DNA from: an uncultured Psychroserpens sp.
GTDB taxonomy: Bacteria > Bacteroidota > Bacteroidia > Flavobacteriales > Flavobacteriaceae
Direction of reading: 5' to 3'
NCBI GenBank assembly: GCA_947488655.1
Contig: CANKZZ010000004.1
Coordinates: 310,001 to 374,000 of the forward strand
Length of the DNA: 64,000 nucleotides
A program made the translations under genes and the position numbers. Below are positions 2-64,000 of the stretch, piece by piece. The notes under the pieces are model-generated. The model was given only the letters and a program-made list of their open reading frames with translations, was not told where the DNA came from and did not search any database. The first letter of the stretch is position 1; each line of letters begins with the position of its first letter.

Positions 2-1576
2 ATTGCGAGTACTTACGATTTACGTTTACTTAATGCAGATCAAGTAGAAAGTATTGAGATTTTAAAAGGAGCAGCAAGTACACTTTACGGTACAGGAGCT
101 GCTAGTGCTGTAATTAATATAAAACTTAAAAAAGCCTCAAAAGACGCTTTTGCTATTAATTTAAAAAGTACGTTGGGTACTAATCAAAATCAGTACGAAA
201 ATGATTATGCAGTTGAGAATTTTGTAAATAGTGTATCTATTAATGGTACTGTAGAGAAATTTAATTATTTAGCAAGTTTTGGTCATCAATTTACAGATGG
301 TTTATCTGCAATTGCAGTAGGCGAAGAGGCTGATGCGTTTAATGCTCAAAACGGAAATGTAAGATTAGGCTATAATTTTTCTAAGGCATTTACATTTAAT
401 GCCTATGCAAGTTTTGATAAGTTTAAAGCAGAGTTTGATGATGGTTTTGGATTTGCAGATGCAGATAATGAATCTATCACAGACCAATACAGAGTGGGTA
501 TTGCTCCAGAGTATAGCTATAAAAATGGTAGTGTAACTTTAAATGTAGCTTACAACGATGTTGAGCGCGAGATTAAATCTAGTTTTCCAACTCGTTTCTT
601 AGCACGTAGTTTTGTAGGTGACCTATTTAATCGTTATAATTTTAATGATAAATTTTACACAGTATTGGGTGTAAATGCGCAAAAAAATGAAATCGAATCG
701 TATTCTATACCATTTGGACAAAGCGAATTTGCTCAAGATATAAGTTCTCAAGAAGGTAATTTTGATATTGTAGATCCTTATGCAAATGTGGTTTACATCT
801 CAGACTCAGGGTTAAGTCTTAATGCAGGTTTGCGTTTAAATAATCATAGCGAGTATGGTAGCCATTTGGTGTATAGTTTTAATCCGTCGTTTAAAAAAGA
901 TGTCAATTTTGGCTACATTAAAGGTTTAGCAAGTTACAGTACATCATTTATTGCACCTTCATTATATCAATTATTTGAACCTTCCTTCGGAAATGTTGAT
1001 TTGCAACCAGAAGAGAATCGTACCATAGAAGTAGGAGCAGAGGTAAAAATTAAGGATAAAGCAACCGTAAGTGTTGTTTATTTTAATCGTTTAGAAGAAA
1101 ATTTTGTTGACTTTGTAGATTTAGGAAGTTTCCAATTTCAGTATAATAACATAGAAGAAGATTTTACAGCTAGTGGTATTGAAGTCGTTGCAGATGTGGC
1201 TCTAACAAAAGCGTTACAACTAAGAGCTAACGGTACTTACACTAAAGTAGATGAAGATTTAAATCTTAGAATTCCTGAGTTAAAAGTAAATGCAACATTA
1301 AATTACCAAATTTGTGATGCTACCTTTATGAGTTTGAGTTATCAATTTAATGATGATCGTAATGATTCATTCTTTAACAGCAACACTTTTGCGAGTGAGA
1401 CAGTGATGTTAGAATCTTACAGTTTATTAGATTTTTACATAAGTCATAAGCTTGTTGAAAATAAGTTAATGCTATTTGCAAATGTTAGTAATATTTTAAA
1501 CGAAGAGTATAGAGAGTTATTTGGTTATACAACCAAGGGACGAAATATTAATATAGGGTTTACTTTAAGTTTATAA
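2..1576 (+). CDS. TonB-dependent outer-membrane receptor, 5' end cut by window edge
   Basis: The reading frame is open from the first bases of the window, so this is the C-terminal part of a longer gene; the first possible internal start (TTG at 173) is not the real one. The leading residues contain the end of a plug domain (VESIEILKGAASTLYGTGAA), the classic TonB-receptor plug signature. The rest is alternating aromatic/polar beta-strand sequence of a 22-strand barrel, ending in NINIGFTLSL, where a hydrophobic terminal strand suits BAM-dependent insertion. These receptors import vitamin B12, siderophores or glycans across the outer membrane, driven by TonB-ExbBD. The overall look is BtuB/siderophore-like rather than SusC-like, but the substrate cannot be told because the N-terminus and upstream neighbours are missing. 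An intrinsic terminator follows at once. Confidence 0.9.
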   Translation: MASTYDLRLLNADQVESIEILKGAASTLYGTGAASAVINIKLKKASKDAFAINLKSTLGTNQNQYENDYAVENFVNSVSINGTVEKFNYLASFGHQFTDGLSAIAVGEEADAFNAQNGNVRLGYNFSKAFTFNAYASFDKFKAEFDDGFGFADADNESITDQYRVGIAPEYSYKNGSVTLNVAYNDVEREIKSSFPTRFLARSFVGDLFNRYNFNDKFYTVLGVNAQKNEIESYSIPFGQSEFAQDISSQEGNFDIVDPYANVVYISDSGLSLNAGLRLNNHSEYGSHLVYSFNPSFKKDVNFGYIKGLASYSTSFIAPSLYQLFEPSFGNVDLQPEENRTIEVGAEVKIKDKATVSVVYFNRLEENFVDFVDLGSFQFQYNNIEEDFTASGIEVVADVALTKALQLRANGTYTKVDEDLNLRIPELKVNATLNYQICDATFMSLSYQFNDDRNDSFFNSNTFASETVMLESYSLLDFYISHKLVENKLMLFANVSNILNEEYRELFGYTTKGRNINIGFTLSL

Positions 1577-1580
1577 TTGA

Positions 1581-1608
1581 AAAAGCCACTCGAGAGAGTG
1601 GCTTTTTT
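1581..1608 (+). terminator. Intrinsic terminator, probably bidirectional
   Basis: A 10-bp stem AAAGCCACTC / GAGTGGCTTT with a GAGA loop is followed by a T run and preceded by an A run. It sits between the converging TonB receptor and S41 peptidase genes and can serve both. Confidence 0.85.
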
Positions 1609-1624
1609 TATCTTAAAATTTAAA

Positions 1625-3070: not shown

Positions 3071-3310
3071 ATGTAATTTTTGTGTTTTAAAATTTCCGAA
3101 GAAAAAAAGAGATCATAGCATTGTTCTACTTTATTCTGAAATTTTAGATTAATTTTCCTTTTCAACCTTTATTACTAAGTTAGTCTAGTAAACTCTAAAT
3201 TTACTTACATTATTGTAAATTAAAAAATATCGTGTAACAAAACTGATACATACTCGTCGTAATAATAAGAAGCGGAATTAATCACTCGTTTTCTAACTAA
3301 CAAACCACAA

Positions 3311-4924: not shown

Positions 4925-5470
4925 ATGAACACATCAATCAAATCAATAATCACTATGTTAATTTTGGTTGTGACTTTACAAAGTTGCAACCAAGATTTAA
5001 CATTGCAAACGTATTACGTAGACAATGAATTGGCTCCAGGTTTTACCTCTCTAGATGTACCAATTAGTATTTTAGATATAGATGAAGAAGCACTTACCAA
5101 AGAGCAGTTAGAAGCTTATGAGTCTATAGAAAAATTGAGTTTAATTGTTTTTGTCTTAGACGAAAGTAATAAAGAACAAATGGATATTGAGTATGCTAAA
5201 GTAAAAGCAATACTTAAAGACCCTAAGTATGAAGAATTAATGCGTGGAGGTAATTCTACCGATGGGAAATTTGTTATAAAGTGTATCGCAGACGGAGAAG
5301 ATGTTGAGGAGTTTATTCTCTTCGGAAATTCAGAAACTTCAGGATTTGGCGTTATAAGAGTTTTAGGAGATGATATGAATTTTAATAAAATTGCAGAATT
5401 AGCTAAAGTACTGCAAAACACAGATATTGAGAATTCTCCATTAGAAAAATTCTCAGGATTTTTTAATTAA
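4925..5470 (+). CDS. DUF4252-like lipoprotein
   Basis: The start is placed at the ATG at 4925, which begins a lipoprotein signal peptide with lipobox LQSC; the few codons further upstream only overlap the previous gene. The 181-residue protein looks like a diverged paralogue of its neighbour: same size, same alternation, and an ILFGNSETSGFGVIRVLGDD stretch late in the sequence. It would be anchored in a membrane facing the periplasm or surface. It is the last gene of the sigma operon, followed by two hairpins, the second with a long T run. Function unknown. Confidence 0.7.
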   Translation: MNTSIKSIITMLILVVTLQSCNQDLTLQTYYVDNELAPGFTSLDVPISILDIDEEALTKEQLEAYESIEKLSLIVFVLDESNKEQMDIEYAKVKAILKDPKYEELMRGGNSTDGKFVIKCIADGEDVEEFILFGNSETSGFGVIRVLGDDMNFNKIAELAKVLQNTDIENSPLEKFSGFFN

Positions 5471-5821: not shown

Positions 5822-7165
5822 TTATATTCCTGTATAATTACTTGGGTTAATAGCTTTTAATTCTGTTTTAATAGCTTGAGAAACATCTAAAGTATCAATA
5901 AATTGAGAAATTGAATGTTCGTTAATCGTATCATTAGTTCTTGTTAAGCCTTTTAATGCTTCATAAGGATTAGGATACGCCTCACGACGTAAAATAGTTT
6001 GTATAGCTTCTGCAACTACAGCCCAATTATTTTCTAAGTCTTGAGCAAATTTAGGCTCGTTAAGTAATAATTTATTAAGTCCTTTTAATGTAGATTTAAA
6101 TCCAATAATTGTATGACCAAAAGGTACACCAACGTTTCTAAGAACAGTACTATCTGTTAAATCACGTTGTAATCTAGAAATAGGCAATTTTGCAGACAGA
6201 TGCTCAAAAATAGCATTTGCTATGCCTAAGTTACCTTCAGAGTTTTCAAAATCTATAGGATTTACTTTGTGAGGCATTGCACTACTACCAACTTCACCTT
6301 TTTTAATTTTCTGTTTAAAATAGTCCATAGAGACATACGTCCAAACATCGCGATCTAAATCGATAAGAATGGTATTGATACGTTTCATGGCATCAAATAA
6401 AGCTGCTATATGATCGTAATGCTCAATTTGAGTTGTAGGGAATGAGTGCTGTAAGCCTAATTTTTCTTGAACAAATTTTGTTCCGAAAGCTTTCCAGTCT
6501 ATTTTAGGATATGCTACTTTATGTGCATTGAAATTACCAGTTGCTCCACCAAATTTTGCAGCACTTGGCACGTCATTTAATAAATTAAACTGTTCTTCTA
6601 AACGTACAACAAAAACTTCTATTTCTTTACCCAAGCGCGTAGGTGATGCAGGTTGACCATGTGTTCTGGCTAACATTGGGATATCTTTCCAATCCTCAGC
6701 AAGTTGTTTTAGCTTATTAAGCACTTCTAGATATTCTGGTACATAGACATCGTTGATAGCCTCTTTAATACTTAGTGGGATGGCTGTATTATTAATGTCT
6801 TGAGAGGTTAATCCAAAATGAATAAACTCTTTATACTTTTCTAATTTTAACGTATCAAATTTTTCTTTTATAAAATACTCAACAGCTTTTACATCATGAT
6901 TGGTAATAGCTTCAATGTCTTTTATAGCTTGTGCATCTTCCGAAGAAAAAGTTGTGTAAATTGCTCTTAAATCATCAAAAACTGTTTTATCTACTCCTGC
7001 TAACTGTGGTAAATCTGCCTCGCAAAGCGCAATAAAATATTCGATCTCTACAAGGACTCTATACTTTATAAGAGCTTCTTCAGAAAAATAAGGTGCAAGA
7101 TTATTAACTTTACTTCTATAGCGACCATCAATAGGAGAGATGGCATTTAATGATGTTATTGACAT
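5822..7165 (-). CDS. purB: Adenylosuccinate lyase
   Basis: The enzyme splits fumarate from SAICAR and from adenylosuccinate in purine synthesis, in the cytosol. The 447-residue sequence carries the fumarase/aspartase superfamily regions in order: SPIDGRY near the N-terminus, TSQD at 120-123, THGQPASPT at 168-176, and the signature GSSAMPHKVNP at 293-303, whose serine is in the flexible catalytic loop. The length fits the E. coli-type PurB. A TAnnTTTG promoter element lies about 36-43 bases upstream. The small membrane protein gene follows directly downstream. Confidence 0.97.
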   Translation of the reverse strand: MSITSLNAISPIDGRYRSKVNNLAPYFSEEALIKYRVLVEIEYFIALCEADLPQLAGVDKTVFDDLRAIYTTFSSEDAQAIKDIEAITNHDVKAVEYFIKEKFDTLKLEKYKEFIHFGLTSQDINNTAIPLSIKEAINDVYVPEYLEVLNKLKQLAEDWKDIPMLARTHGQPASPTRLGKEIEVFVVRLEEQFNLLNDVPSAAKFGGATGNFNAHKVAYPKIDWKAFGTKFVQEKLGLQHSFPTTQIEHYDHIAALFDAMKRINTILIDLDRDVWTYVSMDYFKQKIKKGEVGSSAMPHKVNPIDFENSEGNLGIANAIFEHLSAKLPISRLQRDLTDSTVLRNVGVPFGHTIIGFKSTLKGLNKLLLNEPKFAQDLENNWAVVAEAIQTILRREAYPNPYEALKGLTRTNDTINEHSISQFIDTLDVSQAIKTELKAINPSNYTGI

Positions 7166-7238: not shown

Positions 7239-7811
7239 CTATGATTTTTGCTTATTAATTTTCTTTAGAATATGTCGGGCTCTAGCTTTAAAAGCTGCGC
7301 TTTGTGTTGAGAAGTCACGCTCTAAAATAATTTTTAACTCTGGGTAAATCCAGTCTATATCTTTTCCGAAGAGAAATAATGTAGTCATGCTGTAGGCTTT
7401 TGGAGCTACTTTCTCGTCGTTTATCATCCAATCAAAGCAAGCTTCTACAATTTTTTCTTTATGTTTAGGTAGCAATGCAGCTTTTATAAGCGTTTCTTCA
7501 TTGCCATAATAAGCATATGCTAAGTACTCGCAAACTTTAGCAACAGGTCTAACAGCAGGATCTAAATGTACACGATGCATGTTTTCTGTAAATTGATCTA
7601 AATATGGTATGCAAGCCTCTAGGTTTTCGCCACACATGAACTCAAAAACCCAAGCTGCTCTGCAAGAAATTTTATCATCAACCATAAAAAGTATGGTCAT
7701 TAATTTAGGAATTAAATCAGGATTGTTAATTACCAGGTTTGCATAATGCATGCGTTTTTCTCGTGAGTGATTAACGTAGTTTAATTCTTTATAAAGTTCT
7801 TCGGTAGTCAA
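7239..7811 (-). CDS. Helical-repeat (HEAT-like) protein of unknown function
   Basis: A 190-residue protein built almost entirely of amphipathic helices, with segments such as LIPKLMTILFMVDDKISCRAAWVFEF and PKAYSMTTLFLFGKDIDWIYPELK that resemble HEAT/armadillo repeats. I do not know its role. A protein of this kind beside purB is, as I recall, common in flavobacteria, but no functional link is visible. It has no signal peptide, so it is cytosolic. It is divergent from the haem-binding gene with only 48 bases between the starts, so the promoters must overlap or abut. The octamer motif occurs in its coding sequence at 7364. Confidence 0.6.
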   Translation of the reverse strand: MTTEELYKELNYVNHSREKRMHYANLVINNPDLIPKLMTILFMVDDKISCRAAWVFEFMCGENLEACIPYLDQFTENMHRVHLDPAVRPVAKVCEYLAYAYYGNEETLIKAALLPKHKEKIVEACFDWMINDEKVAPKAYSMTTLFLFGKDIDWIYPELKIILERDFSTQSAAFKARARHILKKINKQKS

Positions 7812-8340: not shown

Positions 8341-9570
8341 TTGATACAAAAATTATTAATTATAGGCTTTGTCTGGCCAGAGCCAAAAAGCTCTGCAGCA
8401 GGAAGCAGAATGTTGCAATTAATCATCTTTTTTCAATCTCAAAATTACGAGGTTACCTTTGCAAGTGCATGTGCTAAGAGCGATAATGCTTTTGACGTGA
8501 CTACCATTGGAGTGAAAAGAGAAACCATAGAACTCAACAATTCTAATTTTGATGATTTTGTTACAAATCTAAATCCTAATGTAGTCGTTTTTGATCGTTT
8601 TACAACAGAAGAGCAATTTGGTTGGCGAGTTACTACACAATGTCCAAACGCTTTAAAAATTTTAGACACAGAAGATTTACACTTTTTAAGACGAGCTAGA
8701 CAACAAGCGTTTAAATCACAAGTTGAATTAAGCAAAGAATATTTATTAAACGATACAACAAAAAGAGAAATTGCGAGTATTTATCGATGCGATTTAAGTT
8801 TAATAATTTCTTCTGCCGAAATGAGCCTGCTTCAAGATACGTTTGATATAGAACGTTCTCTATTACTGTATCTACCGTTTCTTTTGGAGCCAATTTCCGA
8901 AGAAAAAAAAGAAGGGTTTCCTAATTTTGAAGAACGAGCTCATTTTATTTCTATTGGTAATTTTCTTCATGAGCCTAATTACAATGCATTACTCTATCTA
9001 AAAGAAACAATTTGGAAAGGTATTAGAACCAAACTGCCACACGCAGAATTACACAATTACGGGTCGTATGCGTCGCAAAAAGTAACTCAACTACATAATG
9101 AAAAAGACGGTTTTTTAATTAAAGGCTTTGCAGAAGATGTTAATGAGGTTATGAAAAGCGCCAAAGTATTATTAGCACCAATTAGGTTTGGCGCAGGATT
9201 AAAAGGTAAACTTTTTGATGCTATGCAAAACGGAACACCTTATGTCTCTACAAGTATTGGAGTAGAAGGGATTGTAGATGATGTTAATAAGGATTTTGTT
9301 TGTGATACTGCTCAGGAATTTATCAATCATTCCATAAAATTATATACAGATGTTTCTACTTGGAGGCAACAACAAGCATATGGATTTGAAATTTTAGACC
9401 AGCAATTTTCTAAGTCTCATTTTGAAGATGAGTTTTCTTTACGTCTAGCTCAGCTGTCTAAAACGTTGACAGAGCATAGACAACAAAATTTTATTGGTCA
9501 ATTATTACAACATCATACAATGCAAAGCACGAAGTATATGAGTAAATGGATTGAGGCTAAGAATTCTTGA
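8341..9570 (+). CDS. Glycosyltransferase, GT-B fold (group 1/GT4-like)
   Basis: This is a 409-residue cytosolic glycosyltransferase. The C-terminal half carries the nucleotide-sugar binding pattern of GT4-type enzymes: FISIGNFLHEPNYNAL (about 197-212), then LLAPIRFGAGLKGKLFDAM with the E/G-rich donor-site region, then GTPYVSTSIGVEGI. The N-terminal half is the acceptor domain with FVWPEPKSSAAGSRM. The start is a TTG at 8341; there is no in-frame ATG upstream, and the next ATG (8410) would remove the conserved N-terminal strand. Donor and acceptor sugars cannot be inferred, and no polysaccharide cluster surrounds it. Confidence 0.8.
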   Translation: MIQKLLIIGFVWPEPKSSAAGSRMLQLIIFFQSQNYEVTFASACAKSDNAFDVTTIGVKRETIELNNSNFDDFVTNLNPNVVVFDRFTTEEQFGWRVTTQCPNALKILDTEDLHFLRRARQQAFKSQVELSKEYLLNDTTKREIASIYRCDLSLIISSAEMSLLQDTFDIERSLLLYLPFLLEPISEEKKEGFPNFEERAHFISIGNFLHEPNYNALLYLKETIWKGIRTKLPHAELHNYGSYASQKVTQLHNEKDGFLIKGFAEDVNEVMKSAKVLLAPIRFGAGLKGKLFDAMQNGTPYVSTSIGVEGIVDDVNKDFVCDTAQEFINHSIKLYTDVSTWRQQQAYGFEILDQQFSKSHFEDEFSLRLAQLSKTLTEHRQQNFIGQLLQHHTMQSTKYMSKWIEAKNS

Positions 9571-16967: not shown

Positions 16968-17094
16968 TCGAAAAATAATTGTTCTTAAGGTGGAGTTTTA
17001 GTTTAAAAACAGATTAAAACTTTGTTAATTTTATTTTTATTTCTTCGGAAGGATGAGATATTTCTTTATTTTCAATGTTTAAACATTATAACTT

Positions 17095-18737: not shown

Positions 18738-18790
18738 GTGATTCTAATTCTGTTTTTCCGAAGAAAAAATGTTAGAAAATAGTTCTATCC

Positions 18791-28300: not shown

Positions 28301-28424
28301 ATCTTAATCTTCCGCAAATGCGAAATTTTTTAGTTTTAAATTTTCCGAAGAAAATTAATCTTGTATTAACTATGGTTTTATTTGAGTGAATACTGCAAAT
28401 TAAATACTACTCACTGCTTATTTT

Positions 28425-35853: not shown

Positions 35854-35904
35854 ATGCAAAAAAAAATGTTCAACGGTTTATTCTTAAAAAAAACGACAAA
35901 TTTA

Positions 35905-35936
35905 TTTGGCTACCAGCATATTATGATTTATTTTTG
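35905..35936 (+). promoter_or_regulatory. Promoter of the giant surface-protein gene
   Basis: TTTG (35905-35908) is followed after 20 bases by TATTTTTG (35929-35936), a full match to the -33/-7 consensus of Bacteroidota. Transcription would start near 35943, leaving a 5' leader of about 275 bases. No promoter-like element is seen nearer the coding start. Confidence 0.6.
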
Positions 35937-47288: not shown

Positions 47289-47326
47289 TTGATAAATAAT
47301 TAGGGATAATCCCTAAGGGTAATATT

Positions 47327-47358
47327 AAAGGCAGCTATTTTATAGCTGCCTTTTTTTT
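47327..47358 (+). terminator. Intrinsic terminator of the giant gene
   Basis: A 12-bp perfect stem AAAGGCAGCTAT / ATAGCTGCCTTT with a TTT loop is followed by a T run. A smaller TTAGGG / CCCTAA hairpin (47300-47316) precedes it. Confidence 0.9.
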
Positions 47359-47524
47359 ATTTTTTTTTCTTTGGAAATGAGCCTCACATAAAATTTATTA
47401 TACTTATAAGAGCTACAGTTTTGAGTTCTACTGTTGTGATATTTCTCTTACATGTAGATTGCCCTTACCATTTTAAAATGATAAAAATAGGTGAGTTTTA
47501 ATATTTCAGTAGAAAGTGTTTTAA

Positions 47525-47887
47525 CTAAAGTATACTATTTGCCCAAGTGATAGCTTCTGGGAGCATATCAAAAATTTCGAAAGGTTTGTCTAAAAATAGC
47601 TTTTCTATTTGAGCTGTACTTTTTGCCATATAGTTTTGTGAAACCACACAAAAACCCGATAAGTTTTTAACTTTAGCAACTTCTTTATACACTGCAGGAT
47701 CCACTGAGTATGAATTTACTCTATGCGTTATATATACAAACTGTTTATTGCTAAAATAAGTGTTGGCAATATTTGTAAGTACTTTGTTATGAGTTATGGT
47801 AATATTGACACCAGTTTTTATAGTAACTACCATGTAGTTTTCATAGATATGAACATCGCAAAAGTCTAGTGTTAATTTATCTGTCAT
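47525..47887 (-). CDS. Small protein of unknown function, STAS/SpoIIAA-like in outline
   Basis: A 120-residue cytosolic protein with alternating strands and helices (IYENYMVVTIKTGVNI, FVYITHRVNSYSVDPAVYKEVAK, GFCVVSQNYMAKSTAQIEKLFL, MLPEAITWANSIL). This outline is similar to SpoIIAA/STAS-type domains used in protein-protein switching, but no serine phosphorylation site is clear, so I leave the function open. It stands alone between the giant gene and clpC, with a strong terminator upstream of it. Confidence 0.55.
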   Translation of the reverse strand: MTDKLTLDFCDVHIYENYMVVTIKTGVNITITHNKVLTNIANTYFSNKQFVYITHRVNSYSVDPAVYKEVAKVKNLSGFCVVSQNYMAKSTAQIEKLFLDKPFEIFDMLPEAITWANSIL

Positions 47888-47920
47888 CTTTTAAAGTTAG
47901 TAAACATTAGTTGTAAGAAC

Positions 47921-47955
47921 AAAAAAAGCCTCTTAATATTAAGAGGCTTTTTTAT
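47921..47955 (-). terminator. Intrinsic terminator of clpC
   Basis: A 32-base perfect palindrome at 47922-47953, with core GCCTCTTAAT / ATTAAGAGGC flanked by A and T runs. It lies 16 bases past the clpC stop and insulates the small gene that follows on the same strand. Confidence 0.9.
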
Positions 47956-47970
47956 TATTTAAATATTTAA

Positions 47971-50520: not shown

Positions 50521-50777
50521 AGTAATCTCTTTCTGCATTAAAAATAATAAAATCTACCTATAAAAAGGCAAAAACTATACCTTAAATAAAGGCATGCTAC
50601 TAATAGAGTAAAAAAACTTTACAAATTCAAAGTTTTTAACAAAAGACTTATTAAAAATTTGACTAAAATTTGTTAATAAATAGTTCTAAATTTAGATTGA
50701 AAAAGACGCATAAACACTACAGAAATCCTTATCTTAGCCTGATTTGAAAACCTACAAAAATCTAATTTATATAATAT

Positions 50778-53327: not shown

Positions 53328-53354
53328 TTACATAAACACTAAAAATAACTAATA

Positions 53355-54629
53355 ATGAAAAAACAATTTATTGTTGCTCTTGCACTGTTAGTAAGTACGA
53401 TTTCTTTTGCACAAAAGAGCGAGCTTAAAACAGCTGAAAAGGCAATCAAATCAGGAAATTTTGCAGATGCTAAATCGGCAATTCAAACTGCAGAACCTTT
53501 AATAGCAAATGCAGACGACAAATTAAAAGCTAAGTTTTATTTTCTTAAAGGGCAGGCTTTATATGCAGGTGGTTCAGGTTCAAGCACAGAAATGGACCAA
53601 GCTATTGAAAGTTTTAATATGGTACAAAAAGTAGAAGGGTCATCTAAAGGTAAATATAGTTCTACTATAGAAGACTTAAAATCTCAAATGCTTAATAACT
53701 TTCTAACAAAAGCTAACGCAGCTATACAGAGTAAAGATTATGCAGCATCATCTGTAGGATTTGACAAAGCCTACCGTATGTCTCCAAAAGATACAATATA
53801 TCTATATTATGCAGCTTCAACAGCAGTATCTGGTCAAGACTATAAAACATCTTTAAAGTATTATGAAGAACTTAGAGATTTAGGTTTTAAAGGTATAGGA
53901 GTAGAGTATACAGCTGTTAATAAAGAGTCTGGTGAAGTAGAAACTTTTGATAACAAGTCATTAAGAGATATATCTGTTAGAGCAGGTACTCATACAGCGC
54001 CAAAAGACACTAAAACTGAGTCTAAATCTGCCGAAATTGTTAAAAACATTGCCTTAATACATTTAAGTAATGGTGATAACGAAAAAGCTATAGAAGCAAT
54101 GAAATTAGCTAGAGAGCAAAATCCAGATGATTTAGGATTATTAATTTCTGAAGCTAATGTTCAACTCAAAATGGGTAATAAAGATCGTTTTTCAGAATTA
54201 ATGAAAGAAGCGACTCTTAAAGATCCTAAAAATCCTGAGTTACAGTATAATTTAGGTGTAATTGCTGCCGAAGCTGGAGAAAAAGAAGCTGCAATGAAAT
54301 ATTATGACAAAGCTATTGAATTAGATCCATCATACTCTGATGCTTACAATAACATCGCTGTATTAATATTAGCAGAAGAGAGCTCTATAGTTGAAGAAAT
54401 GAATTCTCTTGGAAATTCTAGCGCAGATAATAAGCGTTATGATGAGTTAAGAGCAGAAAGAACAAAAATATTTGAATCTGCAATTCCTTATTTAGAAACG
54501 ACTTTAAAGTTAAAGCCTAAAAATGTGCAAGCAGCACAAACTCTTATGAATATTTATAGAGGAAGTGGTCAAACAGAAAAATATAAAGCGATGAAAGCTA
54601 GAGTTGAAGAACTCGAAGCTGGAAATTAA
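53355..54629 (+). CDS. Exported tetratricopeptide-repeat protein
   Basis: The 424-residue protein has a signal peptide (ending TISFAQ) and at least five TPR-like helix pairs, for example AEKAIKSGNFADAKSAIQTA, NGDNEKAIEAMKLAREQNP, YNLGVIAAEAGEKEAAMKYYDKAIELDP and FESAIPYLETTLKLKP. It is probably a periplasmic scaffold or envelope protein. It lies 27 bases after gyrA, an order that I recall as common in flavobacteria, and is ended by an intrinsic terminator. Its precise role is unknown. Confidence 0.75.
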   Translation: MKKQFIVALALLVSTISFAQKSELKTAEKAIKSGNFADAKSAIQTAEPLIANADDKLKAKFYFLKGQALYAGGSGSSTEMDQAIESFNMVQKVEGSSKGKYSSTIEDLKSQMLNNFLTKANAAIQSKDYAASSVGFDKAYRMSPKDTIYLYYAASTAVSGQDYKTSLKYYEELRDLGFKGIGVEYTAVNKESGEVETFDNKSLRDISVRAGTHTAPKDTKTESKSAEIVKNIALIHLSNGDNEKAIEAMKLAREQNPDDLGLLISEANVQLKMGNKDRFSELMKEATLKDPKNPELQYNLGVIAAEAGEKEAAMKYYDKAIELDPSYSDAYNNIAVLILAEESSIVEEMNSLGNSSADNKRYDELRAERTKIFESAIPYLETTLKLKPKNVQAAQTLMNIYRGSGQTEKYKAMKARVEELEAGN

Positions 54630-54647
54630 AAAGCAAAATATATTAGT

Positions 54648-54682
54648 AAAAAGGCGATTAGAATTTCTAATCGCCTTTTTTT
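54648..54682 (+). terminator. Intrinsic terminator of gyrA-TPR operon
   Basis: A stem AAAGGCGATTAGAA / TTCTAATCGCCTTT is followed by a T run. It touches the stop codon of the convergent NlpC/P60 gene and probably serves both directions. Confidence 0.85.
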
Positions 54683-55430
54683 ATATAATTTTTTTTATAA
54701 CTCTTAACTTATGAGTGTGCATACGCTTATCTGCATTATAAATGCCCGAGTGATCTAACCTATCTATTCTCACTTGACCGTGAGCATGAATTATATAGTT
54801 GTCTTCCATAATAATTCCTACGTGTACAATTTGACCATCTTGATTATCAAAAAAGGCTAAATCTCCAGGCTCACTCTCCTCAATAAAACTTAAAGCTTGT
54901 CCTTGAGTAGCTTGTTGTGAAGCATCTCTTAAAATATGATAGCCATTAAGTTTGTACACCATTTGTGTAAATCCAGAACAGTCTATACCAAAAGGTGTTT
55001 TTCCTCCCCAAAGATAAGGTGCATTTAAAAATGTAAAAGCAGTAGTAATTAAATTAGTTTTATCTTTTTTTGTAGTCGTAAAATTACCGTCAAAAGTATG
55101 GTTCAATAATTCTAATCCATTTAATGAAGACCCAATAGGTATTGTGTATAAATTATTAGTTTTGTCCTGCACATACTCAATTAAATCTAAAGATAATTTA
55201 TGATCTTGACTTTTAATGTTTTTGTAATCGTCCTCTGTAATTTCTAGATATTGTTTATTATCTATCCAACCTTCATATTTATCAAAAGCCAATCTAATTT
55301 TGCTCCACGACTTACGTTGTTCTAATACTTTAAAAATTTCTCCATAAAGTATTTGAGACACGAGCTCTGTAGGATCACTAGGTTCAGCCCTAAGAGGCAC
55401 AATGCTTAGATTACAAATTCCGTATTGCAT
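54681..55430 (-). CDS. NlpC/P60-family endopeptidase with SH3-like domain
   Basis: This 249-residue protein joins an N-terminal bacterial SH3-like domain (NLSIVPLRAEPSDPTELVSQI..., about 5-65) to a C-terminal NlpC/P60 papain-like domain. Cys151 in FGIDCSGFTQMVYKLNG is the nucleophile, and His203 (VHVGI) and His215 (IIHAHG) complete the site. Family members cut gamma-D-glutamyl-diaminopimelate bonds in cell-wall peptides. There is no signal peptide, so export or cytosolic recycling of muropeptides is open. It lies ten bases from the thiolase gene, probably as an operon. Confidence 0.88.
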   Translation of the reverse strand: MQYGICNLSIVPLRAEPSDPTELVSQILYGEIFKVLEQRKSWSKIRLAFDKYEGWIDNKQYLEITEDDYKNIKSQDHKLSLDLIEYVQDKTNNLYTIPIGSSLNGLELLNHTFDGNFTTTKKDKTNLITTAFTFLNAPYLWGGKTPFGIDCSGFTQMVYKLNGYHILRDASQQATQGQALSFIEESEPGDLAFFDNQDGQIVHVGIIMEDNYIIHAHGQVRIDRLDHSGIYNADKRMHTHKLRVIKKII

Positions 55431-55440
55431 TTATACCTTA

Positions 55441-56619
55441 TTAATTACGTTTTATAACCATTGCAGATGCACCACCACCACCATTACAAATTGCAGCAGC
55501 ACCAACATTAGCATTATTTTGTTGTAAAACACTTAATAAAGTGATGATAATTCTAACACCAGAACATCCTAAAGGATGACCCAATGAAACAGCACCACCA
55601 TTAACATTAACGTTGCTATCATTTAAGCCTAATATTTTCATATTGGCTAAACCTACAACAGCAAATGCCTCATTAAATTCAAAATAATCAACATCATTTA
55701 AAGATAAGCCAGCTTTATCTAAAGCTTTTGGCAGCGCTTTGGCTGGTGCAGTTGTAAACCATTTAGGCTCTTGAGCAGCATCAGCATAACTTTTTATTGT
55801 AGCTAAAGGAGTTAAACCTAATTCTTCAGCTTTCTCTTTACTCATAAGTATTATGGCTCCAGCTCCATCATTAATTGTAGATGCATTAGCAGCAGTTACA
55901 GTACCATCTTTTGTAAAAGCAGGTCTTAGTGCAGGAATTTTTTCCATTTTAACGTTGCTAAACTCTTCATCCTTAGATACAACTATTGGTTCACCTCGAC
56001 GCTGAGGAACTTCTACAGGTACAACTTCATCATCAAATTTTCCTGCTTCCCAGGCTGCAGCAGATCTTTTGTAAGATTGAATTGCATAATTATCTTGATC
56101 TTCTCTAGAGAATTCATATTCTGTAGCACAAGCATCTGCACAAACACCCATCGCATTCTGGTCATAAGCATCTACCAAGCCATCCTTTTGCATGCCATCA
56201 ATTAATGTTGCTGGTCCAAATTTAGTACCGGTTCTAGCGTGTAAATAATGTGGTATTAAACTCATGTTTTCCATCCCACCAGCAATAACAATTTGAGCAT
56301 CACCAAGCGCAATAGATTGAGCAGCTTGCATAACAGCTTTCATACCAGAAGCACATACTTTATTAATAGTTGTACAAGGTACAGTATCAGGAATACCAGC
56401 GTAAATTGCTGCTTGCCTTGCAGGTGCTTGTCCAGTTCCTGCTTGGACAACATTACCCATCAAAACTTCATCAACCATGTCTGGTTTTAGATTAATTTTA
56501 TCTAAAGCTCCCTTTATGGCTATAGCTCCAAGTCTTGGAGCAGGAATTGTTGATAATGAACCTAAAAAACTTCCAATTGGAGTTCTTGCTGTTGATACTA
56601 TTACGACCTCTTTACTCAT
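55441..56619 (-). CDS. Acetyl-CoA C-acyltransferase (thiolase)
   Basis: The 392-residue cytosolic thiolase makes or breaks the C-C bond of acetoacetyl-CoA and 3-ketoacyl-CoA. The acylated cysteine is Cys89 in TTINKVCASGMKAV; GGMENMS, NGGAVSLGHPLGCSGVRI and NGGGGAS (with His/Cys catalytic residues) follow in the usual places. It could serve beta-oxidation or ketone-body metabolism, and the sequence alone does not separate these. It is divergent from the HD-domain gene. Confidence 0.95.
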   Translation of the reverse strand: MSKEVVIVSTARTPIGSFLGSLSTIPAPRLGAIAIKGALDKINLKPDMVDEVLMGNVVQAGTGQAPARQAAIYAGIPDTVPCTTINKVCASGMKAVMQAAQSIALGDAQIVIAGGMENMSLIPHYLHARTGTKFGPATLIDGMQKDGLVDAYDQNAMGVCADACATEYEFSREDQDNYAIQSYKRSAAAWEAGKFDDEVVPVEVPQRRGEPIVVSKDEEFSNVKMEKIPALRPAFTKDGTVTAANASTINDGAGAIILMSKEKAEELGLTPLATIKSYADAAQEPKWFTTAPAKALPKALDKAGLSLNDVDYFEFNEAFAVVGLANMKILGLNDSNVNVNGGAVSLGHPLGCSGVRIIITLLSVLQQNNANVGAAAICNGGGGASAMVIKRN

Positions 56620-56781
56620 TTTAAATTTTATTTATTTTAAAGAAACAAAATTAATCATTTTTTAATTAAATAGTAGCTTAGAACTAATAACATCAGTTCT
56701 ATTATATTTTCTTACTTTTGAAAGCATAAGCACTCAGTTGAGAAGCTTTTTCACTAACATGTAGGGCTTAAACATTTTATA

Positions 56782-58827
56782 ATGAATGATTTAATAAATA
56801 GATGGTATCGTAATCATGCACTTTTATATAAGGTGCTTTTATTTTTAAGTACGACGTTTTTAATAGTTTATTTATTTCCGAAAAGTGGGAAATTTAGATA
56901 TGATTTTGATAAGGAGAAACCATGGCAATCTGAAAGTCTTCTTGCTCCATTTGATTTTGCTATTAAAAAAACTTCAGAAGAAATAAACTTAGAAAAACTT
57001 GAAGCGTCAGAGAGAAGTGCGGTTTACTTTGATATTGATAAAACGATAAAACCATCGGTTTTTAAAGCCTATTCAGAGAAATTTAAATCATCCTTTGCAG
57101 ATAGTATAATAAATAATAATAGAGGTCTTTTTAAAGTTGGAGAATCTGCAATTAGGGATATTTATGAATTTGGAGTGTTAGATGAAGAGTATGATTATGA
57201 CGAAACAAAAAATGTAATCTTATTAGATAAACAAACACAATTTGCCGAAACACAATTTTCAAATCTCACTAAACTAGATGGTTTTAGAAGTGTAATTGAA
57301 AATGAACTGAGTGTTAATGGTTTGTCGCAATTTGAAGCAACATTTGTCTCTCTGTTTTTTGATATAATAAAACCTAATTTAAAACTAAATTCTTCATTAA
57401 CACAAAATGCATTAGATGAAAAATTTGCTGCAATTTCTAGCGTTAGAGGGAGTATCGAAAAAGGAACACTTATTATATCTAAAGGAGAAATAGTAGAGGG
57501 TAATAAATTTGAAATTTTAAAATCATTAGAGGCAGAATATGAGTCGCAGGTATGGAATGATTCTAATTATAATTTAATCATTTTTGCATATGCTCTACTT
57601 GTAGCGTTAGCATTATTGATGCTTTTATTATTTCTTCGGAAATATAGAATGGAAGTCTTTTTAGACAATACGAAAGTAACTTTTATCTTTTTTAATATTT
57701 TATTAATGATATTGTTAACCACTTTGGTCATTAATTATAATTCTAAGTACGTATACGTAGTTCCATTGTGCATTCTTCCTTTGGTTTTAAAAGCCTTTTT
57801 TGATGCAAGATTAGGTTTATTTGCACACGTATTAACAGTATTACTTTTAGGCTTTATTGTGCCTAATAGTTATGAATATATGTTTTTACAAATTATCGCA
57901 GGTATTGTAACAATTCTAACAGTATCTGAGTTATATAAGCGTGCAAACTTATTTATTTCGGTAGGTCAAATAACACTCATCTATATCATAGCGTACTTTG
58001 CCTTTTTTGTTATTCAAGAAGGTAACGTAACAAGTCTAGATCCTTCAACTTTTGGTTTGTTTGTATTATGTGGATTAGCCACATTATTTGTGCAACCCTT
58101 AATTTATATTTATGAAAAATTGTTTGGCTTGGTGTCAGATGTTTCTCTATTAGAACTCTCAGATACTAATACAAAGCTTTTAAAAGAGTTGTCTAATAAG
58201 GCTCCAGGCACATTTCATCACTCATTAAATGTGGCCAATTTAGCAGAGGCATCTGCAAATGAGATTGGTGCTAACGCAATGTTAATAAGGGTAGGAGCTC
58301 TCTATCATGATATTGGTAAAATGAAGAATCCAACATATTTTACCGAAAATCAGGCAACAGGTATTAATCCGCACGATGAGCTCTCTCCACGAGAGAGTGC
58401 CAAAATAATTATTGACCATACTTTAGACGGAATTGAAATTGCTAAGAAAAATAATTTACCTGATCGAGTGATAGATTTTATTAGAACCCATCATGGAACA
58501 AGTTTGGTTTACTATTTCTACCGAAAAGAAAAAGAATTTGATGATGAAACCAATGAAGAGGATTTTAGATATCCAGGACCACAACCATACAGTAAGGAAA
58601 CAGCCATTTTAATGATGTGTGATAGCGTAGAAGCTGCATCAAAAAGTTTAAAAGAGCCTACATCTACAAAAATCGATAAATTTGTAGAATCAATTATTGA
58701 TAAACAAATGGAAGATGGTCAATTTTTAAACGCAAATATTACATTTAAAGAAATTCAATCCATTAAGAAAGTGCTTAAAACTAAGCTAGCAAACATCTTT
58801 CATTTACGAATTGAGTATCCAGAATAA
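56782..58827 (+). CDS. 7TM-HD family membrane phosphodiesterase (PgpH-like)
   Basis: The 681-residue protein has one N-terminal transmembrane helix (about 18-33), an extracytoplasmic domain of about 210 residues, seven transmembrane helices (about 265-450) and a cytosolic HD domain (from about 470, GTFHHSLNVANLAEASANEIG, ALYHDIGKM, IRTHHGTSL). This is the PgpH type; PgpH in Listeria hydrolyses cyclic di-AMP, so a role in c-di-AMP turnover is likely. A TACTTTTG -7-like element lies at 56713-56720. Confident for family, less so for substrate. Confidence 0.9.
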   Translation: MNDLINRWYRNHALLYKVLLFLSTTFLIVYLFPKSGKFRYDFDKEKPWQSESLLAPFDFAIKKTSEEINLEKLEASERSAVYFDIDKTIKPSVFKAYSEKFKSSFADSIINNNRGLFKVGESAIRDIYEFGVLDEEYDYDETKNVILLDKQTQFAETQFSNLTKLDGFRSVIENELSVNGLSQFEATFVSLFFDIIKPNLKLNSSLTQNALDEKFAAISSVRGSIEKGTLIISKGEIVEGNKFEILKSLEAEYESQVWNDSNYNLIIFAYALLVALALLMLLLFLRKYRMEVFLDNTKVTFIFFNILLMILLTTLVINYNSKYVYVVPLCILPLVLKAFFDARLGLFAHVLTVLLLGFIVPNSYEYMFLQIIAGIVTILTVSELYKRANLFISVGQITLIYIIAYFAFFVIQEGNVTSLDPSTFGLFVLCGLATLFVQPLIYIYEKLFGLVSDVSLLELSDTNTKLLKELSNKAPGTFHHSLNVANLAEASANEIGANAMLIRVGALYHDIGKMKNPTYFTENQATGINPHDELSPRESAKIIIDHTLDGIEIAKKNNLPDRVIDFIRTHHGTSLVYYFYRKEKEFDDETNEEDFRYPGPQPYSKETAILMMCDSVEAASKSLKEPTSTKIDKFVESIIDKQMEDGQFLNANITFKEIQSIKKVLKTKLANIFHLRIEYPE

Positions 58828-59876: not shown

Positions 59877-61238
59877 TTATTTATTAATATATACTGTTTT
59901 TTTATTTACAAATTCTAGAATTCCTTCTCTAGATAATTCTCTACCGTAACCAGATGCTTTAGTTCCTCCAAAAGGTAATCTTGGGTCTGATTTTACCATT
60001 TCATTTATAAAAAATGAACCATCTTCAATTTTTAATATGTGTTTCTTAGCATCTTCTATATTTTTAGTGAAAATCATCGTACCAAGACCAAACCTTGAAT
60101 TAGACGCCATTTGATAAGCTTCTTCTTTGTCTTTCACCTTAATAATTGAGGCTACTGGGCCAAAGGTTTCTTCATCAAAGACTGGCATACCTGGTTTAAC
60201 GTTAGTTAATATTGTTGGTTGATAATAGGTTTTATTATTCTCATTTCCGAAGTGAAGATGAGCTCCTTTCTCTAATGAATTTTCAACTTGTTTTTTAAGC
60301 GTATCTGCTAAATCTTCTCTAGCCATAACTCCAACTTCACAATTTGTATTAGAAGGATCGCTAACTTTTAAAGCTGCTACTTTTTCTGTAAATCTTTTCA
60401 AAAATTCATCGTAGATTCCTTCTTCTATTATAAAACGTTTTGCAGCAATACAGCTTTGTCCTGTATTTTGCATTCTGGCCTTTACTATTGTATCTAAATG
60501 GATGTCTAAATTTGCATCGTTTAAAATAATGCATGCATTATTACCACCCAATTCTAAAACTGTCTTTTTTAAATTTTTACCAGAAATTTCAGCGATTTTA
60601 ATTCCTGCTTTTTCACTCCCTGTTAGGGATACTGCTTTGATAACATCATTTTCAATAATTTTCTCAATTTGATCATGATCTGCTAATAAGGTTTGAAAGC
60701 AACCATCAGGATAACCAGCCTCTACAAATATATTTTGTATTGCCAAGGCACATCCAGTAACATTAGAAGCGTGCTTTAGTAATGCAGTATTGCCAGCTGT
60801 TAAAGTGGGAATTGCAAATCTCATAACCTGCCAAAATGGATAATTCCATGGCATTACAGCCAAAATAACTCCTAAAGGATCATAACTAATAAAAGTTTCG
60901 TGTGCTTCAGTTTCTATAAGCTCATCTGCTAAAAGTAGATCTGCATTTTTCTTATAAAAATCACAAAGTAAAATACACTTTTCAATTTCAGCCTTACTTT
61001 CTGAGATTGGCTTACCCATTTCATCTGTAATAAGTTGGCTATAACTATCAATTTTTTGATGTAGTATATTAGCAACCTTGTCTAGCAATTTAGCTCTTTT
61101 TTTAACGCTGAGTAGTTGCCATGAATCAAATGTTTTATTTGCCGATGTAACCGCATCATTTACTTCTTGGGTAGAGTATAAGGTGTAAGTTTTTATATGT
61201 TGATTATTGTAAGGATTTATAGTTTCTATCTTGGACAT
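59877..61238 (-). CDS. NAD(P)-dependent aldehyde dehydrogenase (succinate-semialdehyde dehydrogenase-like)
   Basis: The 453-residue enzyme has the ALDH active site: Glu229 in LELGGNNAC and Cys263 in TGQSCIAAKRF, with PWNYPFWQVMRF and LTGSEKAG in the cofactor domain. The compact length and the C-terminal PFGGTKASGYGRELS suit the GabD/Sad-type subgroup. It oxidises an aldehyde to an acid; succinate semialdehyde is the best guess. It is divergent from the YtxH cassette, so shared stress regulation is possible but not shown. Confidence 0.9.
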   Translation of the reverse strand: MSKIETINPYNNQHIKTYTLYSTQEVNDAVTSANKTFDSWQLLSVKKRAKLLDKVANILHQKIDSYSQLITDEMGKPISESKAEIEKCILLCDFYKKNADLLLADELIETEAHETFISYDPLGVILAVMPWNYPFWQVMRFAIPTLTAGNTALLKHASNVTGCALAIQNIFVEAGYPDGCFQTLLADHDQIEKIIENDVIKAVSLTGSEKAGIKIAEISGKNLKKTVLELGGNNACIILNDANLDIHLDTIVKARMQNTGQSCIAAKRFIIEEGIYDEFLKRFTEKVAALKVSDPSNTNCEVGVMAREDLADTLKKQVENSLEKGAHLHFGNENNKTYYQPTILTNVKPGMPVFDEETFGPVASIIKVKDKEEAYQMASNSRFGLGTMIFTKNIEDAKKHILKIEDGSFFINEMVKSDPRLPFGGTKASGYGRELSREGILEFVNKKTVYINK

Positions 61239-63110: not shown

Positions 63111-63141
63111 TTCATTGTAATAATGATCACGTTTTAGTGTG

Positions 63142-63171
63142 AACCTCAGTCTTTTGGCTGAGGTTTTTTTT
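63142..63171 (+). terminator. Intrinsic terminator between convergent genes
   Basis: An 8-bp stem AACCTCAG / CTGAGGTT with a T run, between the acidic lipoprotein and AraC-family genes. Confidence 0.85.
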
Positions 63172-63180
63172 GTTTAGTTG

Positions 63181-64000
63181 TTAGGCAGCAGAAACCTCTG
63201 TCATTAAATTGTTTAATGCATTTTTTCTATAGGCGTTTGGCGTGATGCCATATTTCTCTTTAAAAATTTTAGAAAAATAGCTTCGGCTTGTAAAACCAAT
63301 ACTATAAACTACTTGTGATACATTTAAATCTGCACTTCTCATTAGTTCTCTAGCAGCTTCTAGTCTAATGTGTCTAACAAATTCGGTAACCGTTCTTTTA
63401 TACAAAAATTTAAATCCTTCTTGTAATTTAGCCTGAGATAATCCAGTCTCTGCAGATAATTGCTCTAATGAATAATTAAAAGAAGGATCTTTTATAATTT
63501 TTGTACCAAATTTTCTAATATGTTTCAATTCTGTTTTAGATAAAGTGGTTGGTAACTGTACACCTCTTTGAAACTTATTATGCTGTTCTATATGCAATGA
63601 GAGTATATCGTATAATATAGATTCTATTTTTAAAATACGAACCATACCTTTAGACTTAATCTTTTTAAGTTTTTTGATATAATCAGACATTCGTAAATTT
63701 AAGGCACCATAATGAGCAAAACGGTTCTCGTGATCTGTATCTACAAAAACTTCGTGTAAACGATTGTTTAAAGAAGATACATTTGTTGTTCTCTTCTTTA
63801 AAAAATTCTTTCTAACAATTTGAATGCTTATAATTTCTAATTTTTTTTCCTTCGGAAAATGGATATAATTATAACCACCAGTCTTATTAGTATATATTAG
63901 TGAATGAAACTGTTCTACTAATTTCTCTTCATTATTGATACCAAATCTATGTTTAAAGTCTCCGTTATAGCTATAGATAAAACGTAACGGATTAAAATCA
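63181..64000 (-). CDS. AraC-family transcriptional regulator, N-terminus cut by window edge
   Basis: The frame stays open to the right edge of the window, so an apparent start at 63690 is not the real one; at least 100 more residues precede it. The C-terminal 110 residues contain the double HTH of AraC proteins (YSLEQLSAETGLSQAKLQEGFKFL and RSADLNVSQVVYSIGFTSRSYFSKIFKEKYGITPNAYRK). The preceding part reads like a PchR-type sensor domain. In Bacteroidota such regulators often control iron or polysaccharide genes, but the target is not seen here. Confidence 0.85.
   Translation of the reverse strand, partial: DFNPLRFIYSYNGDFKHRFGINNEEKLVEQFHSLIYTNKTGGYNYIHFPKEKKLEIISIQIVRKNFLKKRTTNVSSLNNRLHEVFVDTDHENRFAHYGALNLRMSDYIKKLKKIKSKGMVRILKIESILYDILSLHIEQHNKFQRGVQLPTTLSKTELKHIRKFGTKIIKDPSFNYSLEQLSAETGLSQAKLQEGFKFLYKRTVTEFVRHIRLEAARELMRSADLNVSQVVYSIGFTSRSYFSKIFKEKYGITPNAYRKNALNNLMTEVSAA

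What the first reader, a model, noticed from the sequence alone, without database searches (positions are those of the whole stretch)
985..63857. Over-represented octamer TTCCGAAG / CTTCGGAA across the window
By eye I count 21 exact copies, starting at 985, 3094, 5320, 6938, 7364, 8895, 12924, 17043, 17136, 17382, 18503, 18756, 20029, 26545, 27731, 28343, 30624, 34364, 57634, 60245 and 63850. At about 33% G+C an 8-mer of this composition should occur about once on both strands together. Ten copies read CTTCGGAA and eleven TTCCGAAG on the plus strand, so there is no strand bias. Seventeen are in coding DNA in all three codon phases, so it is not a protein motif, and four are intergenic. Context is often TTTCCGAAGRAA. 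None lies between 34.4 and 57.6 kb, which spans the giant gene, clpC and gyrA. A DNA-uptake, Chi-like, chromosome-organisation or restriction/methylation word is possible. I know no named element of this sequence in Flavobacteriia.
Basis: partly seen in the sequence, partly recalled or inferred. Interest (0 to 1): 0.72.

Follow-up and report, generated by a model that had tools for sequence, protein, structure and literature searches.

The report
Possible self-DNA tag in marine Flavobacteriaceae
An eight-letter DNA word is scattered over a thousand times through the chromosome of this marine bacterium, on both strands and inside genes as well as between them, much as known DNA-uptake tags are in Haemophilus and Neisseria, which suggests that a quite different group of bacteria may also mark its own DNA.

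Summary
The excess is genome-wide: 580+614 copies against 57+62 for the word read backwards. In the 854 kb I read it is the most over-represented 8-mer (291 against 6.6), with an A-rich tail on one side. Coding copies: 240, against 11.5 after synonymous-codon shuffling. There is no gene-strand bias and no GC-skew-strand bias. Copies are conserved in position (42 of 56 identical in a relative at 77% DNA identity; background 15%). Excess occurs in 22 of 23 genomes of the genus and patchily beyond: 26 of 299 family genomes, 17 of 203 genera, reach 3-fold. The largest motif-free gap sampled is an integrase/Ssp-Pbe defence island. These are genomic marks of a DNA uptake sequence. No pilus ATPase passed the cut-off in this genome (it did in 11 of 23 genus members); likely counterparts of Riemerella's pilus-free transformation genes are present. 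Neighbours within 1 kb prefer divergent orientation. Uptake itself is untested. Verdict: real, probably a DUS-like word in a new phylum.

The parts
985..992 (-). copy of TTCCGAAG, in ORF 173-1576
3094..3101 (+). copy, outside ORFs of 150 aa or more
5320..5327 (-). copy, in ORF 4907-5470
6938..6945 (+). copy, in ORF 5822-7165
7364..7371 (+). copy, in ORF 7239-7811
8895..8902 (+). copy, in ORF 8341-9570
12924..12931 (+). copy, in ORF 11565-13625
17043..17050 (-). copy, outside ORFs of 150 aa or more
17136..17143 (-). copy, in the N-terminal (signal-peptide-like by eye) part of the M24 peptidase gene 17095-18573; left half of a divergent pair with 17382
17382..17389 (+). copy, in ORF 17095-18573; right half of a divergent pair
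18503..18510 (-). copy, in ORF 17095-18573; left half of a divergent pair with 18756
18756..18763 (+). copy, outside ORFs of 150 aa or more; right half of a divergent pair
20029..20036 (-). copy, in ORF 19727-20392
26545..26552 (+). copy, in ORF 26000-27301
27731..27738 (-). copy, in ORF 27368-28300; divergent with 28343 (612 bp)
28343..28350 (+). copy, outside ORFs of 150 aa or more
30624..30631 (+). copy, in ORF 28425-30872
34364..34371 (-). copy, in ORF 34342-35853; last before the 23.3-kb gap
57634..57641 (-). copy, in ORF 56782-58827; first after the gap
60245..60252 (+). copy, in ORF 59877-61238
63850..63857 (-). copy near the window's end; no closed ORF of 60 aa or more covers it
34372..57633 (.). 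motif-free gap: 3689-aa HYR-repeat protein with a T9SS C-terminal sorting domain (36219-47288), ClpC (47971-50538, -), GyrA (50778-53327) and neighbours

Best explanation
TTCCGAAG with its A-rich 3' tail works like a DNA uptake sequence. It would be a short tag read on free double-stranded DNA by the outer-membrane uptake machinery of a naturally competent Flavobacteriaceae lineage, so that kin DNA is taken up preferentially; biased uptake and recombination then make and maintain more than a thousand copies by point substitution (molecular drive, possibly with selection). Shown here: genome-wide excess on both strands, independence from protein and codon use, conservation of position, origin by substitution rather than insertion (within local alignments), lineage specificity, absence from one acquired island, and preference for divergent neighbours within 1 kb.
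For: Genome-wide 580+614 against 57+62. Top 8-mer in 854 kb, 291 against 6.6; 12-mer TTTTCTTCGGAA 108 against 0.14; A at 0.65, 0.73 and 0.82 in the three positions after the core. CDS copies 114+126 against 6.3+5.2 after synonymous shuffling; 0.31/kb coding, 0.65/kb intergenic. No strand bias: own 142 and 149; G006 165 and 152, and 158:159 by local GC-skew strand. 42 of 56 own copies exact in G006 at 77.3% identity, against 14.8% of equal-composition 8-mers; core identity 0.926 against 0.777 and 0.765 in the flanks. Ungapped at 56 of 56 and 90 of 93 aligned sites. Genus-wide excess over 1.5-fold in 22 of 23, patchy in the family. The largest gap, 25.5 kb, is an integrase/SspABCD/PbeAC island. 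ComEC is present. A DUF5689+DUF5017 lipoprotein-like protein next to a CarboxypepD_reg outer-membrane protein matches the domains reported for RA0C_RS04920/04915, needed for Riemerella transformation, with homologues reported in Psychroserpens (PMC8459023, passages). R. columbina prefers its own DNA (PMC7965970, section 16).
Against: No uptake or competence data exist for this organism in what I saw. Known DUS/USS systems use type IV pili, but no PilB-type ATPase passed the family cut-off in G000, G006, G003, G005, G016 or G018; it did in 11 of 23 genus genomes, among them the motif-rich G009 and G021, so the word does not follow it either way. No receptor was pinned down: identity of the DUF5689 lipoprotein to the own copy does not follow enrichment (G009: 32% identity, 8.7-fold). 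A second, secreted DUF5689 protein follows enrichment within the genus (8 of 23; Mann-Whitney p 3e-5, not corrected for kinship, found after looking) but in the family only 9 of the 26 genomes at 3-fold or more match it, against 82 of 299 overall. In the reverse direction conservation is weaker: 42 of 93 G006 copies are exact in the own genome, core identity 0.819 against 0.783-0.785. Positional conservation seems stronger than drive alone might need. Depletion in acquired DNA rests on one annotated island; the second-largest gap holds core genes. Ichthyenterobacterium magnum, whose GyrA is 93% identical, has no excess (24+32 against 64+68).
Confidence: 0.6

Rival explanations
1. Chromosome-organisation site: a nucleoid or condensation protein binds the word, with divergent pairs as double sites, to arrange or compact the chromosome.
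For: Strong positional conservation, genome-wide spread, divergent-pair preference within 1 kb, A-tract next to a GC-richer core.
Against: Present at very different densities in close relatives (1.1- to 18-fold within one genus); spacing is near random (CV 1.08 and 1.11); absent from a 25-kb island that is also part of the chromosome; no orientation to the GC-skew strand.
Confidence: 0.15
2. Chi-like word that regulates a RecBCD/AddAB-type nuclease and so protects or recombines self DNA.
For: Octamer, self-enriched; divergent pairs are the arrangement that would shield a segment from exonucleases entering at both ends, if the word is read from its 3' side (inference).
Against: No GC-skew-strand bias: 158 against 159 in G006 (summed); no coding-strand bias: 114 against 126. 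Known Chi sites are oriented (recalled). Presence of RecBCD or AddAB was not checked.
Confidence: 0.1
3. HIP1-like word kept by a methyltransferase or another modification system.
For: HIP1 is an over-represented octamer tied to orphan methyltransferases (PMC4390886, start of abstract in the search listing). A phosphorothioation-type island exists in this genome.
Against: The word is not a palindrome; it carries a long one-sided A-tail; the Ssp island itself is free of it. Modification was not testable.
Confidence: 0.08
4. RNA element: terminator or C(UUCG)G tetraloop hairpin.
For: CTTCGG reads as C-UUCG-G on one strand (seen in the sequence).
Against: 240 of 291 copies lie inside called genes, 114 sense and 126 antisense; the single-site hairpin is only -0.8 kcal/mol on one strand and none on the other; convergent pairs would fold equally well but only divergent ones are in excess.
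Confidence: 0.02
5. By-product of protein composition, codon use or a dispersed repeat.
For: Four intergenic copies at C4 48.9-66.4 kb sit in one repeat. Codon phases are uneven. A 4-fold excess in Altibacter and Aequorivita could partly be ordinary.
Against: Synonymous shuffling keeps only 11.5 of 240 copies; contexts carry little shared information beyond about 20 bp; aligned orthologous sites are almost all ungapped.
Confidence: 0.02

Closest known systems
Pasteurellaceae uptake signal sequence (AAGTGCGGT)
   Same: Core of 8-9 bp, hundreds to thousands of copies, both strands without chromosome orientation bias, in and between genes, AT-rich extension on the 3' side (H. influenzae consensus in PMC1939737, passages). 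In several Pasteurellaceae the reverse complement leans to gene 5' ends and the forward form mostly to 3' ends (PMC2346458, part 1 of 3), which would also favour divergent pairs.
   Different: Different word and phylum; uptake not shown; no type IV pilus ATPase passed the cut-off in this genome. A gene-end bias is not clear here (deciles). Divergent pairs here are about 30-1000 bp apart, unlike the 0-3 bp overlapping hairpin pairs of Haemophilus (PMC7811141, passages).
Neisseriaceae DNA uptake sequence and its dialects (ATGCCGTCTGAA)
   Same: Genus-level word with lineage variants, atypical in integrated mobile elements (PMC7371117, abstract and outline; PMC3630211, search listing only).
   Different: Neisseria reads it with ComP (title in a reference list); no such pilin was sought here. 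A second dialect here is only suggested.
Chi recombination hotspots
   Same: Over-represented octamer on the self genome.
   Different: No strand orientation.
HIP1 of cyanobacteria
   Same: Over-represented octamer across a clade (PMC4390886, search listing).
   Different: HIP1 is palindromic.
Natural transformation of Riemerella (Flavobacteriales)
   Same: Candidate gene pair with the same reported domains (DUF5689+DUF5017; CarboxypepD_reg) and ComEC; self-DNA preference reported for R. columbina.
   Different: Only A/T-rich k-mers were listed for Riemerella (PMC7965970, Table 3 in section 16); no word like TTCCGAAG appears there.

Membership tests
DNA uptake sequence (DUS/USS) | short word strongly over-represented genome-wide | tested here: met
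DNA uptake sequence (DUS/USS) | excess not due to protein or codon use | tested here: met
DNA uptake sequence (DUS/USS) | both strands, no chromosome orientation bias | tested here: met
   orientation judged by local GC skew in 520 kb of G006
DNA uptake sequence (DUS/USS) | lineage-specific word with relatives sharing it | tested here: met
   within-genus correlation of log enrichment 0.81 over 94 genus pairs
DNA uptake sequence (DUS/USS) | scarce in acquired elements | tested here: inconclusive
   one annotated island of 25.5 kb without copies; the second-largest gap includes core genes, and the third (15.5 kb) is below the 18.3 kb expected by chance for the longest
DNA uptake sequence (DUS/USS) | dialects in related genera | tested here: inconclusive
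   TGCTGAAG: 37 against 2.5 in 80 kb of Mesonia mobilis; 33 against 6.3 in CDS after shuffling; genus g105 is the strongest outlier
DNA uptake sequence (DUS/USS) | read by type IV pilus machinery | tested here: not met
   no T2SSE/PilB match over the cut-off in G000; 11 of 23 genus genomes pass, with no visible link to enrichment; another candidate route is present. Other pilus genes were not sought.
DNA uptake sequence (DUS/USS) | presence raises DNA uptake or transformation | not testable with these tools
   needs bench work
Chi site | oriented along replication or coding strand | tested here: not met
   158:159 in G006 (summed); 114:126 in CDS
HIP1 | palindromic octamer | tested here: not met
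   TTCCGAAG is not its own reverse complement
HIP1 | linked to a DNA methyltransferase | not tested
   no methylome; methyltransferases not sought
Intrinsic terminator | intergenic, oriented hairpin | tested here: not met
   240 of 291 in CDS; hairpin -0.8 kcal/mol
MITE/REP repeat | inserted element with shared body | tested here: not met
   context information falls to about zero within 20 bp; ungapped at 56 of 56 and 90 of 93 aligned sites. Four copies do sit in one repeat.

The most novel reading that the evidence does not exclude
Flavobacteriaceae have an uptake-sequence system independent of those in Haemophilus and Neisseria. The tag is read not by a pilus tip but by a SusC/SusD-like surface pair (CarboxypepD_reg barrel plus DUF5689/DUF5017 lipoprotein). 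Reading is directional, which is why sites within 1 kb face away from each other, and genera carry dialects such as TTCCGAAG and TGCTGAAG.
Probability: 0.28. Interest if true: 0.92.

Novelty: new variant of a known kind. Interest (0 to 1): 0.78.

Why it matters
I know experimentally supported uptake sequences only from Pasteurellaceae and Neisseriaceae (recalled). A third, independent origin in Bacteroidota, shared by genomes with and without the pilus ATPase, would test whether uptake tags arise by drive whenever a receptor is biased. It would give a handle on the unknown outer-membrane DNA receptor of Flavobacteriia, offer a genomic marker for competence and for acquired islands, and suggest how to transform these marine bacteria.

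Tried and rejected
Protein or codon by-product: rejected by synonymous shuffling. Dispersed repeat: rejected by context and ungapped orthologues, apart from four copies in one repeat. Terminator or RNA hairpin: rejected. Chi/KOPS by strand: not supported.

Receptor search: identity of the DUF5689 lipoprotein across 23 genus genomes does not follow enrichment. The secreted DUF5689 paralogue does within the genus but not across the family: 9 of 26 genomes at 3-fold or more match, against 82 of 299 overall. ComEC is in 52 of 57 genomes and so uninformative. T2SSE passes its cut-off in 13 of 57 genomes, 11 of them in the genus, including motif-rich G009 and G021 but not G000 or G006. Polarising gains with G014 gave only 4 usable sites. 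Divergent pairs in Altibacter (10, against 5, 11, 2) and Aequorivita (5, against 4, 2, 0) were not clearly significant: 38 and 31 of 500 permutations reach them. The control words for the pair test were too few or clustered on one strand, so of little use. A search of papers for the octamer's letters gave 1,874 papers, 20 listed, none of the listed on this subject. Library searches for uptake sequences, frequent octamers or Chi in this phylum listed no report of such a word; one search showed 20 of 445 papers. One search (Psychroserpens, natural competence) showed 20 of 1,250 papers.
Full report
What was claimed and what is there. All 21 are present at the stated coordinates, 11 and 10 by strand; 100 dinucleotide shuffles give 0.99 on average and 4 at most. 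Sixteen of 21 lie in closed ORFs of at least 150 aa, not 17. The gap from 34.4 to 57.6 kb holds a 3689-aa HYR-repeat protein with a type IX sorting domain, ClpC and GyrA.

Whole genome. The window lies in a 3.6-Mb assembly (G000) in which the octamer occurs 580 times forward and 614 times reverse, against 57 and 62 for the word read backwards. The best GyrA matches are two uncultured Psychroserpens (95 and 94%), P. burtonensis (93%) and Ichthyenterobacterium magnum (93%). I. magnum itself shows no excess (24+32 against 64+68). In 854 kb that I read (790 kb fetched plus the window), the octamer is the most over-represented 8-mer by an order-2 Markov score: 291 against 6.6; the second to sixth are shifted versions of it. 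The extended consensus is T-TTCCGAAG-AAAAAA: T at 0.73 before the core, A at 0.65, 0.73, 0.82, 0.66, 0.56, 0.66 after it. Some one-mismatch forms are also in excess (TGCCGAAG 43 against 4.0, TTCCGCAG 49 against 5.8, TTCCGTAG 52 against 8.6), while the median one-mismatch ratio is 1.13.

Not protein, codon or RNA. With genes called as longest ORFs, 240 copies are coding and 51 intergenic; density is 0.31 and 0.65 per kb. Shuffling synonymous codons within each gene leaves 6.3 and 5.2 copies against 114 sense and 126 antisense observed. Codon phases are uneven (11, 81 and 148 in phases 0, 1, 2), so proteins limit where the word can sit. The lack of gene-strand bias speaks against an RNA role; the single-site hairpin is worth only -0.8 kcal/mol on one strand.

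Not oriented to replication. In 520 kb of the complete relative G006 (chosen because it has the highest count in the genus), 158 copies lie on the locally G-rich strand and 159 on the other (summed; GC skew is a proxy for the replichore). Spacing is close to random (CV 1.08 and 1.11).

Conservation. In 155 kb aligned between the own genome and G006 at 77.3% identity, 42 of 56 own copies are identical in G006, against 14.8% of 8-mers of equal composition. Identity over the core is 0.926, against 0.777 and 0.765 in the flanks, and 0.82 in the A-tail. In the other direction the signal is weaker: 42 of 93 G006 copies are identical in the own genome and core identity is 0.819 against 0.783 and 0.785, as expected if G006 has gained copies. 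Sites are ungapped at 56 of 56 and 90 of 93, so within these local alignments copies arise by substitution, not by insertion.

Divergent neighbours. Within 1 kb, pairs reading CTTCGGAA...TTCCGAAG (tails outward) number 53 in the own sample, against 16 convergent and 11 + 11 tandem. In G006 the numbers are 75, 41, 28 and 38. None of 1000 strand permutations reached either divergent count. From 1 to 3 kb the types are about equal (51, 51, 43, 48 in the own sample; 95, 103, 110, 81 in G006). The excess is seen within genes, across genes and between genes, and the distances vary, so it is not one inserted element. Altibacter and Aequorivita, with fewer copies, are not clearly significant. A one-sided action of each site would make a second site on its tail side redundant; that is my inference, and it explains the depletion of the other types better than the two-fold excess of divergent ones.

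Distribution. All 23 genomes of the genus have the word; enrichment over the reversed control runs from 1.1 to 18.4, above 1.5 in 22 of 23 and above 3 in 11 of 23. Of 299 family genomes drawn (three of them from the genus), 26 are at 3-fold or more, spread over 17 of 203 genera; the median is 0.71; the within-genus correlation of the log ratio is 0.81 over 94 pairs. Among 50 genomes behind my GyrA loci (50 of the 80 loci), 6 are at 3-fold or more: two Psychroserpens, Salinimicrobium sediminilitoris, two Aequorivita and Altibacter lentus. In Altibacter and Aequorivita samples the word is still the top 8-mer but only about 4-fold (65 against 14.0; 38 against 9.7), with a weak tail. In 80 kb of Mesonia mobilis another word leads, TGCTGAAG (37 against 2.5), in CDS 33 against 6.3 after synonymous shuffling. 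Across 299 genomes that word has a broad baseline; genus g105 is the strongest outlier (945 and 1302 copies), followed by G301 (821) and G325 (652). Whether g105 is Mesonia was not established, and part of the signal may be the codon pair Ala-Glu. A dialect is therefore suggested, not shown.

Acquired DNA. The largest motif-free stretch in the own sample, 25.5 kb, contains a tyrosine integrase, a DUF3987 protein and SspA (almost equally DndA), SspB, SspC, SspD with PbeA and PbeC. The second, 23.3 kb, is the window's gap with core genes. The third, 15.5 kb, looks like a glycosyltransferase cluster by eye, but is shorter than the 18.3 kb expected by chance for the longest gap. For Neisseria, atypical uptake-sequence distribution has been used to find integrated elements (PMC7371117, abstract).

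Machinery. No T2SSE/PilB-type ATPase passed its cut-off in G000, G006, G003, G005, G016 or G018; it did in 11 of 23 genus genomes, including motif-rich G009 and G021. ComEC is in 52 of 57 genomes including G000. Riemerella transformation needs ComEC, DprA, ComF, RecA, an HHH protein, a DUF1343 protein, a DUF5689+DUF5017 protein and a CarboxypepD_reg outer-membrane protein; no pilus homologues were found there, and homologues of the new genes are reported in Psychroserpens (PMC8459023, passages). The own genome has a 476-aa DUF5689+DUF5017 lipoprotein-like protein beside a 957-aa CarboxypepD_reg protein and an Exo_endo_phos_3 gene (L229); the DUF5017 hit is below Pfam's cut-off, and orthology to the Riemerella genes rests on domains and adjacency, not on a sequence comparison. 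Within the genus the first protein varies from 32 to 83% identity to the own one, while its neighbour stays at 72-77% in the four genomes compared. The variable protein is a fair receptor candidate, but its identity does not follow enrichment. A second, type-IX-secreted DUF5689 protein is found in 8 of 23 genus genomes, with enrichment 3.2-18.4 against 1.1-4.7 in the rest. I found this after looking, did not correct it for kinship, and it does not extend to the family: 9 of the 26 genomes at 3-fold or more match it, against 82 of 299 overall.

Judgement. The set of features matches what defines uptake sequences in genomes, apart from the pilus, and the functional test is missing. I therefore say that it works like a DUS/USS with about 0.6 confidence and do not file it as a member. 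Chromosome organisation is the main rival, chiefly because of the strong positional conservation and the paired arrangement. On checking this report against the calls I corrected the pilus-ATPase statement (it is present in G009 and G021) and the family test of the paralogue; neither changes the odds, because the word occurs with and without both.

Literature seen. PMC7965970: sections 14 and 16 and passages. PMC8459023, PMC1939737, PMC7811141, PMC2843746: passages. PMC2346458: part 1 of 3 of the text. PMC7371117: abstract and outline. PMC3630211 and PMC4390886: search listing only. Library searches that listed no Bacteroidota uptake word: (one search lists the R. columbina paper, which gives only A/T-rich k-mers). 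Known Chi orientation and the taxonomic limits of known uptake sequences are recalled.

Noticed in passing
G000:C1:306742-332218 (L016, L017): 25.5-kb island with tyrosine integrase, DUF3987, SspABCD, PbeA and PbeC (phosphorothioation-type defence) and no copy of the word.
   Followed up: partly
window 36219-47288: 3689-aa gene with HYR-like repeats and a T9SS C-terminal signal, G+C 0.37-0.39; probably the source of other frequent words in the window such as TCCTGCTT and TACTGAGTGTGG (not checked).
   Followed up: partly
L230:9283-11034 (G000) and L232:9036-10697 (G006): T9SS-secreted DUF5689 protein at the same syntenic spot in several genus members with different N-terminal domains (weak Lamin-tail match in one), as if modules were swapped.
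   Followed up: partly
L229:9061-14634: DUF5689/DUF5017 lipoprotein-like protein, CarboxypepD_reg barrel and Exo_endo_phos_3 protein side by side; the first is far more variable in the genus than its neighbour.
   Followed up: partly
G000:C4:48929, 58125, 65592, 66396 (L023, L024): Four copies of an intergenic repeat that holds AATTCCGAAGGAATTT and so carries the word by duplication.
   Followed up: no
Mesonia mobilis G088 sample L225-L228: TGCTGAAG is the leading 8-mer, a possible dialect.
   Followed up: partly
G029 sample L217-L220: Both TTCCGAAG and TTCCGCAG are in excess, with GATC-containing words such as GATCTCC.
   Followed up: no
window about 18600-18680: A run of AAT trinucleotides near an intergenic copy of the word (18756).
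   Followed up: no
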